64,000 bases of DNA from Lunatimonas sp. (lineage in GTDB: Bacteria; Bacteroidota; Bacteroidia; Cytophagales; Cyclobacteriaceae): the NCBI RefSeq assembly GCF_020832325.1, contig NZ_JAFIEU010000037.1:37185-101184 (forward strand). Reading direction: 5' to 3'. The translations under genes were made by a program, and so were the position numbers. The notes under the pieces were generated by a model, which saw only the letters and a list, made by a program, of their open reading frames with translations, was not told the origin of the DNA and made no database searches. This document shows positions 53,790-57,844 of the stretch, in pieces (position 1 is the stretch's first letter; every line of letters begins with the position of its first letter).

Positions 53790-54431
53790 CTATGATTCGC
53801 TCCTTTTTAACAGCGCCTTGAGGCTGTCCAATGCCCTGTAGATGATTTTCCGCGCCGACTTTACCTCGTTTAATTCCATCACCTCCGCTATTTCCTTGTA
53901 GCTCATCCCTTCCTCATATAGCAATAAAACCGCCTGCCGTTGCCTGCTCGTTAGCTGACTCAATGCCTGCTGAATCTTGATTTTTTGCTCGCTTTCCCGC
54001 TCTTGCTGTATGAGCTTTGTCTCAAAGGACACTTCAATGTCAAAAAAACCTTCGCCCAGCGTCTCCGTACTGACTTTGTTGCCTTTTTGCTTTGAGAGCT
54101 CCCGAATCAAATCCCGTTGCAGGCACTTGTACAGGTAGGACTTGATGCTCGCTACGGCACTCAAACCCCCACGCTTTTTTCTCAGCCCGATAAAGATGTT
54201 CTGTATGCAGTCCTGGACCATGGCCTGATCCTGAGTGATTTGGCTGCCAAAGCGAAATAAGTTCGGTGCGTGGACCCGGTAGATATAATTAAATGCCATT
54301 TCGTCGCCTTCATCGAATGCTCTCCAAATTTCCAGATCTGCTTTGTCTTTGAAAATCTCCATGGTAGCCGCATGCCGGTACGGCAGAGGGATATCGGGTA
54401 GGGTGGTTCTATTTTTCGGGTTTATACTCAT
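53790..54431 (-). CDS. ECF-type RNA polymerase sigma factor
   Basis: 213 residues. Region 2 is visible as DEGDEMAFNYIYRVHAPNLF, continuing with DQAMVQDCIQNIFIGL; region 4 as LTSRQRQAVLLLYEEGMSYK followed by EIAEVMELNEVKSARKIIY, the helix-turn-helix. The Met at residue 24 (MEIFKDKADLEIW) could be the true start. Regulated by the adjacent FecR, it probably drives the SusC-SusD-sulfatase genes. It heads the minus-strand regulatory cassette. Confidence 0.92.
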   Translation of the reverse strand: MSINPKNRTTLPDIPLPYRHAATMEIFKDKADLEIWRAFDEGDEMAFNYIYRVHAPNLFRFGSQITQDQAMVQDCIQNIFIGLRKKRGGLSAVASIKSYLYKCLQRDLIRELSKQKGNKVSTETLGEGFFDIEVSFETKLIQQERESEQKIKIQQALSQLTSRQRQAVLLLYEEGMSYKEIAEVMELNEVKSARKIIYRALDSLKALLKRSES

Positions 54432-54716
54432 GAGCGCGGGTTATTTCGCCTTCCTAACCTAAAGAGGAACAAACCACCGAAAATGACCCCATTATTATTT
54501 TAAAAAAAATGCAGTTGGCAAAATTTTACAAACGGTATATTTAATTTAAACAAAATATAGCCTATACATACAAGCGTTCTACTTACTATACCGGTACGAA
54601 AAAGCATGAAAAATCCACAAAACAACCAACATATTCCGCGAAATCGATCCGAGCTGACACCTGAAAAAAATAACTTCATGACCGGGATGCCTCCAACATT
54701 AGCAAAAAATTATTTG

Positions 54717-54920
54717 TTAGGCAGCTGGCAAATCAATTACACCGATCAAACTCTCCACTAGAAGGCTAATCGCAGTCTCTTCGGCATCTTTTCTTTGTTG
54801 GGTGATGGCGCCAAAGTGAGATTGAATCATCTTTGAAAGACTGGTCTTTTTTTTATGATGATAAATCTTAGCTCTTTTGATAAACTGATCATGAAACCTT
54901 AGTGTCAATTTAGTCTCCAT
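54717..54920 (-). CDS. Orphan, probably truncated DUF6364-like antitoxin
   Basis: This 67-residue protein has METKLTLRFHDQFIKRAKIY and SLSKMIQSHF, a ribbon-helix-helix pattern like that of the antitoxin at 38355-38609. It ends soon after ESLIGVIDLPAA, earlier than family members that carry a toxin-wrapping tail. No PIN gene follows: the downstream 285 nt lead to the sigma gene. Either the partner was lost or it works as a free repressor. A dyad lies just upstream (54929-54957). Confidence 0.6.
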   Translation of the reverse strand: METKLTLRFHDQFIKRAKIYHHKKKTSLSKMIQSHFGAITQQRKDAEETAISLLVESLIGVIDLPAA

Positions 54921-54928
54921 AGACGTTT

Positions 54929-54957
54929 CTATAAAGTAAGTTCAAACATTACTATAG
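54929..54957 (-). promoter_or_regulatory. Imperfect dyad upstream of the orphan antitoxin
   Basis: CTATAAAGTAA (54929-54939) and TTACTATAG (54949-54957) form a dyad with a two-base bulge, around a centre containing CAAACATTA (minus-strand TAATGTTTG, close to a -7 box). Possible operator. Confidence 0.4.
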
Positions 54958-55293
54958 TACACGTCAATTGCTGCGGTATATTACGGAAAAACAAATCACC
55001 GCAATGAACACGTACGTCTTTTTAACCGACCAAATCAACCCGTTCACCTGCTGGATACCCGTGTTAGTCGATTAATTTTCAAATTCCAATCATCAAGTGG
55101 TAACTTTATTTTCGTAATCAGCCGGATATCAATAGATCATCCACCGCTGATGGAAGTTGGTTTGTGTGGTTAGTTTGTGAAGTTGGTGTGCAGTTGGCTG
55201 GTGTAGTTGGTTGTGTAGCATGTGAAGGTGGTTAGTTGGGTTATTTTTTTAACTGGCAATTTTTTAAAGAAAGTCGCAGCTAAAGGCTTAATT
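54958..55293. other. Noncoding stretch with G/T-rich repeat
   Basis: Between the orphan antitoxin and the terminator. Positions 55151-55242 are strongly G/T-rich on the plus strand, with GTTGG or AGTTGG recurring about six times, followed by seven T (55244-55250). No credible gene is present. A plus-strand small RNA ending at the terminator 55294-55323 is possible. Confidence 0.4.
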
Positions 55294-55323
55294 CCTCCGG
55301 AAGCATATTCCGGAGGATTTTTT
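55294..55323 (+). terminator. Strong intrinsic terminator, upstream of the his promoter
   Basis: CCTCCGGAA (55294-55302) pairs perfectly with TTCCGGAGG (55308-55316) around a 5-nt loop, followed by A and six T. It points along the plus strand, though no plus-strand protein gene lies just before it; it may end a small RNA or isolate the his operon. Confidence 0.85.
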
Positions 55324-55355
55324 GTTTGCACCCAACCCACAAAATGGTAGGGATA

Positions 55356-55387
55356 TTTGGGATGTTAGAAATCGCTCGCTAAATTTG
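55356..55387 (+). promoter_or_regulatory. Consensus Bacteroidetes promoter of the his operon
   Basis: TTTG (55356-55359), 20 nt, then TAAATTTG (55380-55387): an exact match to the TTTG-N19-21-TAnnTTTG consensus of the primary Bacteroidetes sigma factor. The transcript would start about 4-6 nt further on, only a few bases before the leader ATG at 55398. Confidence 0.75.
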
Positions 55388-55397
55388 TCGGGAAGTT

Positions 55398-55490
55398 ATG
55401 AAGCCAGTGCGCAAACATAGTGTCTCTCATTCGATTTTTTCCCATCCTACCTTGCATGGGCACCACCGGCTTTGCCACCATGGCAACTAA
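55398..55490 (+). CDS. hisL: Histidine-rich leader peptide of the his operon
   Basis: 30-codon ORF starting ATGAAGCCAGTG and ending TAA at 55488-55490, with His at residues 7, 11, 16, 20, 22, 23, 27 and 28; the last ones are two His-His pairs near the end. It lies between an exact promoter and hisG (93 nt before the hisG ATG). Such composition is the hallmark of amino-acid attenuation leaders: ribosome stalling at His codons when charged tRNA-His is scarce. It has almost no 5' untranslated region. No homologue was recalled; the call rests on composition and position. Confidence 0.72.
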   Translation: MKPVRKHSVSHSIFSHPTLHGHHRLCHHGN

Positions 55491-55532
55491 GCGGCCGTCC
55501 CGTATCCCCATGCACTCATTTTGGATCATACG
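55453..55532 (+). promoter_or_regulatory. Mutually exclusive stems in the his leader RNA
   Basis: TGCATGGG (55453-55460, inside the His codons) is the exact complement of CCCATGCA (55507-55514, after the leader stop). Competing elements are TTGCC/GGCAA (55472-55476 with 55482-55486) and ATCC/GGAT (55504-55507 with 55523-55526). A T tract is absent, so any attenuation is not classical intrinsic termination. Confidence 0.5.
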
Positions 55533-55582
55533 TTGAATCCACTAACCCAAATTCCCTTATCATTTAATCTCTAAATACTTTC

Positions 55583-56443
55583 ATGGAAAACATCATACGA
55601 ATTGCCGTACAAAAAAGTGGTAGATTAAGCGAAGATTCCCTAAGCCTGATCAAGGAATGTGGCATCAAGTTTTACAACGGTACCGGCAAGCTCAAATCCA
55701 CCTCCACCAATTTTCCGATTGAATTTTTGTTCTTGCGGGATGACGATATTCCGGGTTACGTCTCCGATGGCGTGGCAGACTTGGGAATAGTAGGTGAAAA
55801 CGAGCTGGTGGAAAAAAACAAGGAAGTTACCGTAGTCAAGAAGCTGGGGTTTTCCAAATGCCGTCTTTCCCTAGCCATTCCAAAGGGGGAAGAATATGCC
55901 GGTATCGGCCATTTTGAAGGCAAAAGCATTGCGACGTCCTACCCCAAAATACTGGGAGACTACCTGGAGAAACACCGCGTAAAAGCTGAGATCCATGAAA
56001 TCAGCGGCTCCGTGGAGATTGCCCCCAGCATCGGCCTTGCAGAAGGGATCTGTGATATTGTAAGCTCCGGATCCACCCTGATGATGAACGGACTGAAAGA
56101 AGTAGAAGAGATATTCCGATCGGAGGCGGTATTGATAGCGGATCCAAAAATCTCCCCTGCCAAGCAAGACATTGTGGATAAACTGCTCTTCCGAATGAAT
56201 GCCGTGCAAAAGGGAAAGAGCAACAAATATGTATTACTGAACGCTCCAAATGCTTCCTTGGACCGTATCGTCTCCCTGATTCCGGGAATGCGAAGCCCAA
56301 CCATCCTGCCGCTGGCCCAAGAGGGTTGGTCCTCGGTACATTCCGTCATCGCCGAAGACCAATTTTGGGAAAACATCGAAGAACTGCGGGCCGCAGGTGC
56401 AGAGGGCATCCTAGTGGTTCCCATTGAAAAGATGGTCCTCTAG
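55583..56443 (+). CDS. hisG: ATP phosphoribosyltransferase, long form
   Basis: This 286-residue protein begins the histidine pathway, joining ATP and PRPP. It has IRIAVQKSGRLSEDSLSLIK at the start, ADLGIVGENELVE, and the PRPP-binding SIGLAEGICDIVSSGSTLMM. The additional C-terminal domain of about 75 residues (from KYVLLNAPNASLDRIVSLIP to GAEGILVVPIEKMVL) is the ACT-like regulatory domain of long HisG, the site of feedback inhibition by histidine. The ATG is the first start after the leader region. hisD follows after 108 nt. Confidence 0.97.
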   Translation: MENIIRIAVQKSGRLSEDSLSLIKECGIKFYNGTGKLKSTSTNFPIEFLFLRDDDIPGYVSDGVADLGIVGENELVEKNKEVTVVKKLGFSKCRLSLAIPKGEEYAGIGHFEGKSIATSYPKILGDYLEKHRVKAEIHEISGSVEIAPSIGLAEGICDIVSSGSTLMMNGLKEVEEIFRSEAVLIADPKISPAKQDIVDKLLFRMNAVQKGKSNKYVLLNAPNASLDRIVSLIPGMRSPTILPLAQEGWSSVHSVIAEDQFWENIEELRAAGAEGILVVPIEKMVL

Positions 56444-56551
56444 TAAACCGGTAATGACATAAACAAGCCTCTTAAACGAGGATCCGCCTTCCATCCGACG
56501 TTTTTCCAATCACATGGCAGGTATCAACGCTGAAAAGACACTACTAATCCT

Positions 56552-57844
56552 ATGAAAGTCCTTGTAAATCCCCCACGAAATAGCTGGAAAAAAGAACTGG
56601 CCAGGCCAGCCATCAAGCTAAAGGATATCGAAAAAATCGTGAAGCCCATCATGCAAAAGGTGAAACGCCAGGGAGACAAAGCCCTGCGCAAATTTGCTTT
56701 GGAGTACGATCACGTGGAAATCGACCGGATGCTGGTTACGAAGGAGGAAATCGAAGAGGCAAAAGGTCTGGTGCCCGCAGAGTTAAAACAATCCATCCAA
56801 CAGGCCCTGGAAAACATCACGAAGTTTCACCAAGCCCAAAAAACGCCCGATCTGGAGATGGAAGTCATGGAGGGCGTGACCTGCATGCGCCGCAGCGTTC
56901 CTGTGCAAAAAGTTGGCTTGTACATCCCAGGTGGTACCGCGCCACTTTTTTCTACCGTCCTCATGCTGGGAGTACCCGCCAAGCTGGCCGGATGCGAGGA
57001 AGTAGTGCTTTGCTCCCCCCCCAACGCCGAAGGTAAAATTCACCCTGCTATCCTATACACAGCAGACTTGGTAGGCATTCCGACCATCGTGAAAGCAGGG
57101 GGTGCACAAGCCATTGCCGCTTTTACGTACGGTACCCAGTCCGTGCCCAAGGTAGATAAGATTTTTGGCCCGGGTAACCAGTACGTGACTGCAGCCAAAC
57201 AACTGGCCATTAAAAAAGGCGTGGCCATAGACATGCCTGCCGGCCCTTCGGAGGTACTTGTGTATGCCGACGAAACCGCCATTCCGGCCTTTGTAGCTGC
57301 TGATTTGCTCTCGCAGGCCGAGCATGGGATTGACTCCCAGGTGGTGTTGGTGTGTTCCTCCGAAAAAATCACCAAAAAAATCCTCAAAGAAGTGGATGCC
57401 CAGCTAGCCAAGCTGCCCCGTCAAAAAATCGCCCAAAAAGCCCTGGACAATAGCGTGGCTATCGTGATGTCAAACCAGGACAAAGCCATCGCGCTGATCA
57501 ACGAATACGCCCCCGAACACCTTATTCTATCCGTCGCCGACGAAGACGAAGTTGCCGCTCGGATTGTCAATGCCGGATCGGTGTTTTTGGGTAATTATAC
57601 CCCGGAATCAGCGGGAGACTATGCTTCCGGTACCAATCATACCCTGCCCACCAACGGCTACGCAAGAAACCACAGCGGCGTGTCCCTGGACAGTTTTGTC
57701 AAGAAAATCACCTACCAAAAGATCACCGAAAAAGGACTGCTTAACCTAGGACCTACTGTGGAGGTGATGGCTGCGAGCGAATCTCTAGATGCCCATAAAA
57801 ACGCAGTGACCATCCGTATAAACCACATCAACGGCAAGGATTAA
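56552..57844 (+). CDS. hisD: Histidinol dehydrogenase
   Basis: This 430-residue enzyme has the normal family length. It oxidises L-histidinol to L-histidine in two NAD-dependent steps. Diagnostic blocks are VGLYIPGGTAPLFSTVLML, IFGPGNQYVTAAKQLA, DMPAGPSEVLVYADE with the zinc-site region LLSQAEHG, and TNHTLPTNGYARNHSGVSLD. The stop overlaps nothing but is 1 nt from the hisC start, which indicates co-translation. Confidence 0.97.
   Translation: MKVLVNPPRNSWKKELARPAIKLKDIEKIVKPIMQKVKRQGDKALRKFALEYDHVEIDRMLVTKEEIEEAKGLVPAELKQSIQQALENITKFHQAQKTPDLEMEVMEGVTCMRRSVPVQKVGLYIPGGTAPLFSTVLMLGVPAKLAGCEEVVLCSPPNAEGKIHPAILYTADLVGIPTIVKAGGAQAIAAFTYGTQSVPKVDKIFGPGNQYVTAAKQLAIKKGVAIDMPAGPSEVLVYADETAIPAFVAADLLSQAEHGIDSQVVLVCSSEKITKKILKEVDAQLAKLPRQKIAQKALDNSVAIVMSNQDKAIALINEYAPEHLILSVADEDEVAARIVNAGSVFLGNYTPESAGDYASGTNHTLPTNGYARNHSGVSLDSFVKKITYQKITEKGLLNLGPTVEVMAASESLDAHKNAVTIRINHINGKD

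What the first reader, a model, noticed from the sequence alone, without database searches (positions are those of the whole stretch)
55356..55582. His-rich leader peptide with near-zero 5' UTR upstream of hisG
Seen: an exact TTTG-N20-TAAATTTG promoter, then a 30-codon ORF with 8 His (including two His-His pairs near the end) starting only about 5 nt after the expected transcription start, then a TGCATGGG/CCCATGCA long-range stem, then hisG. Known: His-rich leaders upstream of his operons mediate attenuation in Proteobacteria. Inference: a Bacteroidetes version, possibly leaderless and without an intrinsic terminator, so the mechanism (Rho, translation coupling or RNA switching) may be new.
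Basis: partly seen in the sequence, partly recalled or inferred. Interest (0 to 1): 0.8.

Follow-up and report, generated by a model that had tools for sequence, protein, structure and literature searches.

The report
Near-leaderless, terminator-free histidine leader switch
Just before this bacterium's histidine-making genes sits a conserved mini-gene packed with histidine codons that likely senses histidine shortage; its message is predicted to start only about six bases before its first codon, and, unlike the tryptophan and branched-chain leaders of the same genome, it has no terminator hairpin behind it, so its off-switch would have to work another way, likely through the termination factor Rho.

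Summary
Window 55398-55490 encodes 30 codons with 8 His, the only His-rich one of 1199 small ORFs, behind an exact TTTG-N20-TAAATTTG promoter and directly before hisGDCB. In 79 of 79 usable loci (window included) hisG is preceded by an ATG ORF of 20-34 codons with 3-8 His, the -7 box ending 7-10 nt before the ATG: a predicted 5' UTR of 3-6 nt, 6 in the window (box position from PMC9723704). In a phylum sample, 34 of 40 His leaders of other families have a strong intrinsic terminator; in this close group 1 of 79 does, although the same genome's trp and ilvD leaders have one. So the sensor was kept and the terminator lost. Pairing to the hisG start is not above chance over the 79; the spacer is C-rich and G-poor and Rho is encoded, so Rho is my best, unproven, off-step. 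New variant of a known kind.

The parts
55293..55317 (+). intrinsic terminator-like site just before the leader promoter
   Evidence: 10-bp stem then TTTTTTGTTT
55356..55387 (+). Bacteroidota-type promoter P1: TTTG, N20, TAAATTTG
   Evidence: 78 of 79 loci have strict TAnnTTTG 7-10 nt before the leader ATG and 75 of 79 a TTG 17-23 nt before the box
55392..55397 (+). predicted 6-nt 5' UTR (+1 predicted at 55392)
   Evidence: box = -12 to -5 in PMC9723704; not measured
55398..55490 (+). His-rich leader ORF, 30 codons, 8 His
   Evidence: counterpart in 79 of 79 loci
55434..55440 (+). U-run inside the leader ORF, seen at this place in many relatives
   Evidence: read by eye, not counted; function unknown
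55441..55460 (+). HP1: hairpin CCCAT/ATGGG before the main His codons
   Evidence: a hairpin of 5 or more bp in 65 of 66 anchored loci (no chance rate computed for that count); fold energy z -1.8 against mononucleotide and -1.35 against dinucleotide shuffles; the window is not among the 66
55467..55497 (+). HP2: CGGC..TTGCC-ACCAT-GGCAA..GCCG around the stop codon
   Evidence: in 74 of 79 loci a hairpin spans the leader stop codon; z -1.82
   Evidence: present; 10% of shuffles have one; fully seen only in L001
55491..55582 (+). C-rich, G-poor spacer, candidate Rho-loading region
   Evidence: C 31.5%, G 10.9%; no terminator-like site
55522..55541 (+). HP3: TGGAT..ATCCA hairpin with no U-run after it
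   Evidence: hairpin at a similar place in relatives, z -0.88, modest covariation there
55583..56443 (+). hisG
   Evidence: TIGR00070
56552..57844 (+). hisD
   Evidence: TIGR00069
57846..58898 (+). hisC
   Evidence: TIGR01141
58911..60011 (+). bifunctional hisB
   Evidence: NF003937

Best explanation
The 30-codon, 8-His ORF at 55398-55490, which lies directly before hisGDCB and has counterparts before hisG in relatives, likely works as a leader-peptide sensor of charged tRNA-His, is predicted to be translated from an AUG only about 6 nt from the RNA's 5' end, and, having no intrinsic terminator behind it, likely switches transcription off through Rho. Proposed cycle (all steps inferred): a ribosome loads on the near-terminal AUG as soon as it leaves RNA polymerase, so translation is coupled from the start. 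With enough His it runs through the HGHHRLCHH codons, ends at the stop inside HP2 and leaves; the His-codon stretch and the C-rich, G-poor spacer are then bare, Rho loads, and transcription ends before or early in hisG. When His is scarce the ribosome stalls on the His codons, sits on that stretch and melts HP1/HP2, Rho cannot load, and hisGDCB is transcribed. My sub-odds: His-sensing leader 0.93; near-leaderless start 0.85; no intrinsic terminator 0.9; Rho as the off-step 0.4.
For: Conservation: adjacent His codons in 78 of 79 and a box-to-ATG gap of 7-10 nt in 79 of 79; other ATGs of the same stretches have such a box in 10 of 212. Linkage: of 29 phylum loci with long flanks, all 9 with a leader have hisD-like sequence (by eye) after hisG, and 17 of 20 without one have a long divergent ORF at once upstream (hisD in the one tested). 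His leaders in other families. Strong intrinsic terminator in 1 of 79 close loci against 34 of 40 elsewhere, and 0 of 79 in the first 250 nt of hisG; the own trp and ilvD leaders have one. C/G ratio between stop and hisG: close group 1.58; window 31.5% C to 10.9% G; six terminator-free loci of other families 2.26; 34 terminator-type loci 0.87; 42 background upstream regions 1.26. Rho encoded. hisG start not sequestered above chance.
Against: Nothing was measured: no TSS, 3' ends, Rho effect or His response. C-richness is a weak sign of Rho loading: the group mean (1.58) is not far above background (1.26), 2 of 42 background regions reach a ratio of 2.5, and the region before hisD shows a C excess of up to 0.17 too. 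HP2 forms after ribosome release and would hide part of the candidate site. The His codons are no more unpaired than with shuffled flanks (z -0.13). The window's genus is divergent: model R2, built from 20 relatives, finds nothing in the three genomes of its genus that are listed, nor in the window stretch (best E 5.9). In 43 of 79 loci a TAnnTTGY element is placed for a leaderless hisG mRNA, a possible second promoter that would bypass the leader; the window lacks it.
Confidence: 0.45

Rival explanations
1. Ordinary attenuator with a weak intrinsic terminator: HP2 (stop-codon hairpin) or HP3 terminates RNA polymerase, helped by the U-rich bases that follow HP2 in some relatives.
For: 18 of 79 loci pass a loose terminator rule (dG -6.3 to -10.9), several of them HP2 plus a U-rich tail; the form in other families is mostly intrinsic. 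In group A the 3' arm of HP2 can also pair with bases just before hisG (84% of weighted sequences, some covariation), a possible switch.
Against: 1 of 79 at dG -10 or better; none between leader and hisG in the window; the group A pairing has no counterpart in the group B list.
Confidence: 0.22
2. Translational attenuation: the leader RNA hides the hisG start unless a ribosome stalls on the His codons, much as reported for leaderless poly-Cys ORFs of mycobacteria.
For: In the window the minimum-energy fold pairs the U-run/CCCAU with the hisG start; the RNAalifold consensus of group A pairs the His-codon region with the hisG start; known precedent (PMC9031893, passage).
Against: Leader:hisG-start duplexes over 79 loci are no better than shuffles (mean z 0.03; 15% below -1); start accessibility hardly changes between free, two stalled and at-stop states (0.445, 0.473, 0.457, 0.464); group B loci whose hisG begins ATGAAT keep the same leader codons without the match (by eye).
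Confidence: 0.15
3. A protein or other factor reads a spacer motif (such as the invariant ATATCGCCC of one group of relatives), and the leader only couples translation to it.
For: ATATCGCCC is identical in 20 of 20 rows of alignment A2.
Against: The motif is changed in most Algoriphagus rows and absent from the window (by eye).
Confidence: 0.1
4. The leader is a relic; hisG is expressed mainly from a second, leaderless promoter.
For: TAnnTTGY at exactly -12 of the hisG ATG in 43 of 79 loci, background 0.00028 per position; the motif was tested by mutagenesis at one F. psychrophilum operon (passage).
Against: Not in the window, L001 or L002; His codons and spacing are kept, which a relic would lose.
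Confidence: 0.05

Closest known systems
Enterobacterial his attenuator (His_leader, Rfam RF00514)
   Same: His-rich leader ORF ahead of hisG; sensing by ribosome stalling on His codons (here inferred)
   Different: No strong intrinsic terminator, no Rfam match, predicted 3-6 nt 5' UTR with no room for a Shine-Dalgarno site
Flavobacterium psychrophilum 5' elements upstream of hisG and pheA (PMC9723704)
   Same: Same phylum; the authors report strong clues for leader-peptide attenuation at amino-acid operons and a structured element upstream of hisG (passages)
   Different: No His ORF, spacing or switch is described in the passages I saw; loci that I take for Flavobacteriaceae have strong terminators
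His-leader attenuators of some Firmicutes (PMC9413887, passages)
   Same: His-rich leader ORF ahead of his operons, found by comparison outside Proteobacteria
   Different: There with terminator and antiterminator hairpins
Leaderless poly-Cys ORFs of mycobacteria (Canestrari 2020, not held; seen as described in PMC9031893, passage)
   Same: Amino-acid codons in a (near-)leaderless short ORF controlling the genes behind it
   Different: Other phylum and amino acid; there control of translation, here start sequestration is not above chance
tnaC of E. coli, and the Rho idea for mycobacterial cys leaders (PMC1262725, passages)
   Same: Leader peptide without intrinsic terminator, Rho as (proposed) terminator
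   Different: Here the cue is lack of an amino acid and stalling would turn the operon on; for the cys case the authors call their prediction rather weak

Membership tests
Classical ribosome-mediated transcription attenuator | short ORF rich in codons of the operon's product | tested here: met
   8 of 30 codons His; counterpart in 79 of 79 loci
Classical ribosome-mediated transcription attenuator | directly ahead of the cognate biosynthetic operon | tested here: met
   hisGDCB
Classical ribosome-mediated transcription attenuator | intrinsic terminator between leader and first gene | tested here: not met
   none in the window; 1 of 79 at dG -10 or better; 18 of 79 by a loose rule
Classical ribosome-mediated transcription attenuator | mutually exclusive antiterminator pairing | tested here: inconclusive
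   no alternative helix shared by groups A and B; the window has HP1 against the 8-bp stem, but only one close relative shares that
Classical ribosome-mediated transcription attenuator | expression responds to charged tRNA-His | not testable with these tools
   needs experiment
Rfam His_leader RF00514 | covariance-model match | tested here: not met
   not among the matches up to E=1 in window 54000-57000; 0 gathering matches in 10 of the 80 relative loci
Leaderless-ORF attenuator | start codon at or very near the 5' end of the RNA | tested here: inconclusive
   predicted 3-6 nt from promoter spacing in 79 of 79; TSS not mapped
Rho-dependent leader (tnaC-like) | C-rich, G-poor RNA with little structure and no intrinsic terminator | tested here: inconclusive
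   composition and lack of a terminator fit, but the excess over background is modest in relatives
Rho-dependent leader (tnaC-like) | Rho gene in the genome | tested here: met
   PF07497 match in a 622-codon frame
Rho-dependent leader (tnaC-like) | termination lost when Rho is inhibited | not testable with these tools
   needs bicyclomycin or rho depletion

The most novel reading that the evidence does not exclude
A histidine switch with no terminator hairpin: the His codons themselves are the Rho-loading site, so the stalled ribosome is both sensor and shield, and a near-5'-terminal AUG puts one ribosome right behind RNA polymerase. An old intrinsic attenuator, still present elsewhere in the phylum and in the same genome's trp and ilvD leaders, would have been rewired to Rho in this group and perhaps separately in a few other families (by my guess Bacteroidaceae), with a leaderless hisG promoter as bypass in many relatives.
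Probability: 0.28. Interest if true: 0.82.

Novelty: new variant of a known kind. Interest (0 to 1): 0.6.

Why it matters
Amino-acid leader attenuation was worked out mainly in Proteobacteria; a 2010 survey knew of no leader-peptide system outside Proteobacteria and Actinobacteria before its own Firmicutes case, the atypical ermC aside (PMC2965389, passages). Here His leaders precede hisG in many sampled families of Bacteroidota, whose genes lack Shine-Dalgarno sites according to PMC9723704 (passage). A leader starting 3-6 nt from the RNA end offers a clean case of how such a phylum couples ribosome and polymerase. Because the trp and his leaders of one genome differ in having or lacking the terminator, replacement of an intrinsic terminator by another off-switch becomes directly testable.

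Tried and rejected
Translational sequestration of the hisG start: duplex test over 79 loci, mean z 0.03, little change in accessibility between ribosome states; kept as a rival because group A's RNAalifold consensus shows such a pairing. Antiterminator-like alternative helices: the column-pair scan listed several candidates, among them the HP2 3' arm with bases before hisG (group A, 84%, some covariation), a 5'-end lock ATGAACAG/CTGTTCAT (group B, 85%, no covariation) and ATATCG/TGATAT (group B, 78%, no covariation); none is shared by both groups. RNAalifold consensus weak in both groups. HP1 and HP2 keeping the His codons unpaired: not beyond shuffled flanks (57 distinct stretches). Terminator inside early hisG: 0 of 79 at dG -9. 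A second his leader before the own genome's hisA/hisF cluster: none seen in 3.4 kb. Leaders at thrA, pheA and two other chorismate-binding genes: none seen in the 1.6-1.9 kb taken. Near-leaderless genes genome-wide: the promoter pattern gives 33 hits against 19 for the reversed control; in the 30 of 33 fetched (the window's own is among the three not fetched) I read no other amino-acid-run leader; the trp leader is not in the list, its promoter having no TTTG at the -33 place.

Selection and dropped rows. The 79 are the window plus 78 of the 80 loci that the hisG search kept of 194; L059 and L076 were dropped for too little upstream sequence. The 80 were picked by hisG similarity, not by leader; some are near-duplicates (74 distinct leader ORFs). 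The leader caller asked for 18-40 codons and 3 or more His and preferred ORFs with a box within 14 nt; without that preference 77 of 79 still had one. Phylum set: 69 loci, the 29 given besides the window plus 40 that I chose, out of 252 genomes with a hit; 47 passed the automatic rule. For the terminator count, 3 of these belong to the close group and 4 were dropped as doubtful (L096, L109, L139, L147; L109 and L147 had terminator hits, L096 and L139 none); L093 (His leader by eye, with terminator by eye) was missed by the rule. The six terminator-free loci of the composition test are L131, L133, L139, L140, L141, L143, so they include the dropped L139 and leave out L114. In one search I set L093 as leader and L096 as none by hand; L109, doubtful, is one of the 9; L095 has hisD-like sequence after hisG and still no leader. 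Family trp set: 14 of 30 loci (of 55 genomes with a hit) had a WW leader, all 14 with a terminator at dG -8; L226's ORF is dubious and L210 uses a TTG start. Covariation alignments used 32 and 20 relatives chosen by group.

Literature: ten searches of open-licence PMC papers, seen as listings; of eleven papers I saw passages only. In these I saw no description of a Bacteroidota His leader peptide beyond PMC9723704's remark; PMC7366714 mentions sORFs reminiscent of leader peptides, none for His. Supplements could not be read.

Full report
What is there. Between a terminator-like site at 55293-55317 and hisG at 55583 lie an exact Bacteroidota-type promoter (TTTG 55356, N20, TAAATTTG 55380-55387), a 30-codon ORF at 55398-55490 with 8 His and two His-His pairs, and a 92-nt spacer. 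It is the only His-rich one of 1199 small ORFs in the window. hisG, hisD, hisC and hisB follow on the same strand.

Conservation. A hisG search of named genomes kept 80 loci of 194; their titles name Lunatimonas, Belliella, Algoriphagus, Cyclobacterium, Echinicola and similar genera, which I take for Cyclobacteriaceae. With the window, 79 have enough upstream DNA; all 79 have an ATG ORF of 20-34 codons (57 of them exactly 27) with 3 to 8 His; 78 have an adjacent His pair, 66 a HH-x(x)-HH run, 61 HHxHHS. The window's own version (HGHHRLCHH) and its nearest relative L001 are divergent from this.

Start spacing. In all 79 the -7 box (TAnnTTT[GA]) ends 7-10 nt before the ATG; 78 have strict TAnnTTTG and 75 a TTG at the -33 place, while other ATGs of the same stretches have such a box in 10 of 212. 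The box lies at -12 to -5 in F. psychrophilum (PMC9723704, passage), so the predicted 5' UTR is 3-6 nt, 6 in the window. Leaderless mRNAs are 5.5% there, and 5' UTRs under 10 nt about 3.7% in B. thetaiotaomicron (PMC7366714, passage), so this is unusual. No start was measured.

The phylum. hisG was found in 252 of 296 genomes of the phylum. In 69 upstream regions examined, 47 pass a His-leader rule. After setting aside 3 of the close group and 4 doubtful ones, 34 of 40 have a strong hairpin plus U-run before hisG; the six without are L114, L131, L133, L140, L141 and L143. In some loci that I take for Flavobacteriaceae, such as L117, a segment after the His codons (CTCAAGCG) matches the terminator's 5' arm (CGTTTGAG), as in a classical antiterminator (read by eye). 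16 of the 40 start within 10 nt of the box, 9 within 13-21 nt, and 15 have no box within 25 nt. Leaders go with operon shape: all 9 leader loci with long flanks have hisD-like sequence after hisG (by eye), and 17 of 20 without a leader have a long divergent ORF directly upstream, hisD in the one tested; two of the 9 also have a divergent ORF within 300 nt, and L095 has hisD-like sequence after hisG but no leader.

The missing terminator. In the close group 1 of 79 his leaders (L025) reaches dG -10 with a U-run; a looser rule gives 18 hits, partly HP2 with a U-rich tail. The window has none there, nor has early hisG in any of the 79 (dG -9). This is not because the lineage lacks terminators: the same genome's trp leader (MKKAFYIQNWWWFYFK, gap 9) and ilvD leader (MFSTVSIISLVVILIQKR) are each followed by one, and so are all 14 trp leaders found among 30 family loci (dG -8 or better).

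RNA structure. Three hairpins recur: HP1 just before the His codons (5 or more bp in 65 of 66 anchored loci, no chance rate for that count; z -1.8 on 59 distinct sequences, or -1.35 with dinucleotide shuffles), HP2 spanning the stop codon (74 of 79; z -1.82), and HP3 some 20-35 nt after the stop (z -0.88). Covariation of HP3 is modest: in 32 sequences 3 of its 10 pairs change on both sides (71 of 500 shuffles reach that; covariation score 1 of 500); in 20 sequences 2 of 13 pairs do, both in HP3's six (83 of 500; score 0 of 500, but a +3 slide equals it). No alternative pairing is shared by the two groups. Model R2, built from the 20 group B rows, matches 38 of 148 genomes of the GTDB family, once each, with strict filters; the weaker matches are doubtful (the one in G076 lies where hisG has a divergent ORF and no His leader), and none is found in the three listed genomes of the window's genus. 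The four matches fetched have hisG just downstream.

How it likely works. Sensing by a ribosome on the His codons is the natural reading of such an ORF ahead of his genes. The off-step must replace the missing terminator. Hiding of the hisG start is not above chance over the 79, although group A's RNAalifold consensus and the window's own fold show such pairings. The terminator-free loci are C-rich and G-poor where terminator types are not (C/G 1.58 in the close group, 31.5% to 10.9% in the window, 2.26 in six loci of other families, against 0.87 in 34 terminator types and 1.26 in 42 background regions); the window's C excess runs from about 180 nt upstream to the hisG start, but a smaller one stands before hisD as well. 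Rho is encoded. I therefore favour Rho loading on the bared His codons and spacer, blocked by a stalled ribosome. This step is inferred and could be wrong; the chief rival is a weak intrinsic terminator at HP2.

A second promoter in relatives. 43 of 79 loci have TAnnTTGY starting exactly 12 nt before the hisG ATG (background 0.00028 per position), and C precedes the ATG in 76 of 79. PMC9723704 describes this motif (SM5) at the same place as the -7 box and tested it by mutagenesis at one operon (passages). It would give a leaderless hisG mRNA. The window lacks it.

What is known. PMC9723704 already reports clues for leader attenuation at amino-acid operons and a structured 5' element at hisG in Flavobacteriaceae. 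His-leader attenuators are also reported in Firmicutes (PMC9413887). Leaderless amino-acid ORFs controlling operons are known in mycobacteria (PMC9031893), and Rho was proposed for terminator-free cys leaders (PMC1262725). New here, as far as my ten searches show, are the spread of the His leader over the phylum sample, its fixed near-leaderless start in this group, and a lineage that kept the leader but lost the terminator. Because the intrinsic terminator was tested and not met, I do not file it as a classical attenuator; it would work like one at the sensing end. Verdict: new variant of a known kind, interest 0.6.

Noticed in passing
L194:714-764 (G000:C34, window's genome): Trp leader MKKAFYIQNWWWFYFK, box 9 nt before its ATG, followed by a strong intrinsic terminator ahead of a chorismate-binding (trpE-like) gene.
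   Followed up: yes
L193:1188-1244 (G000:C13, window's genome): Branched-chain leader MFSTVSIISLVVILIQKR with a terminator ahead of an ilvD-family gene.
   Followed up: partly
12 nt before hisG in 43 of 79 loci, e.g. L004, L006, L053: TAnnTTGY element at the exact place for a leaderless hisG transcript.
   Followed up: partly
L114:357-430 and L122 (complement 359-432): tRNA-Phe gene directly upstream of the His leader in two genomes, possibly co-transcribed.
   Followed up: no
alignment A2, spacer between HP2 and HP3: ATATCGCCC identical in 20 of 20 rows although non-coding.
   Followed up: no
window 55434-55440 and the like place in many relatives: Run of T inside the leader ORF, some 40-50 nt after the predicted start in the window (by eye); a pause site is possible.
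   Followed up: no
L139, L141, L143: Leaders with 10-11 His in families that I guess to be Bacteroidales; L141 and L143 start with GTG 4-5 nt after the box; a hairpin seems to surround the stop codon (by eye); no strong terminator.
   Followed up: partly
17 of 29 phylum loci, e.g. L088: hisG without leader has a long divergent ORF (hisD in L088, the one tested) at once upstream.
   Followed up: partly
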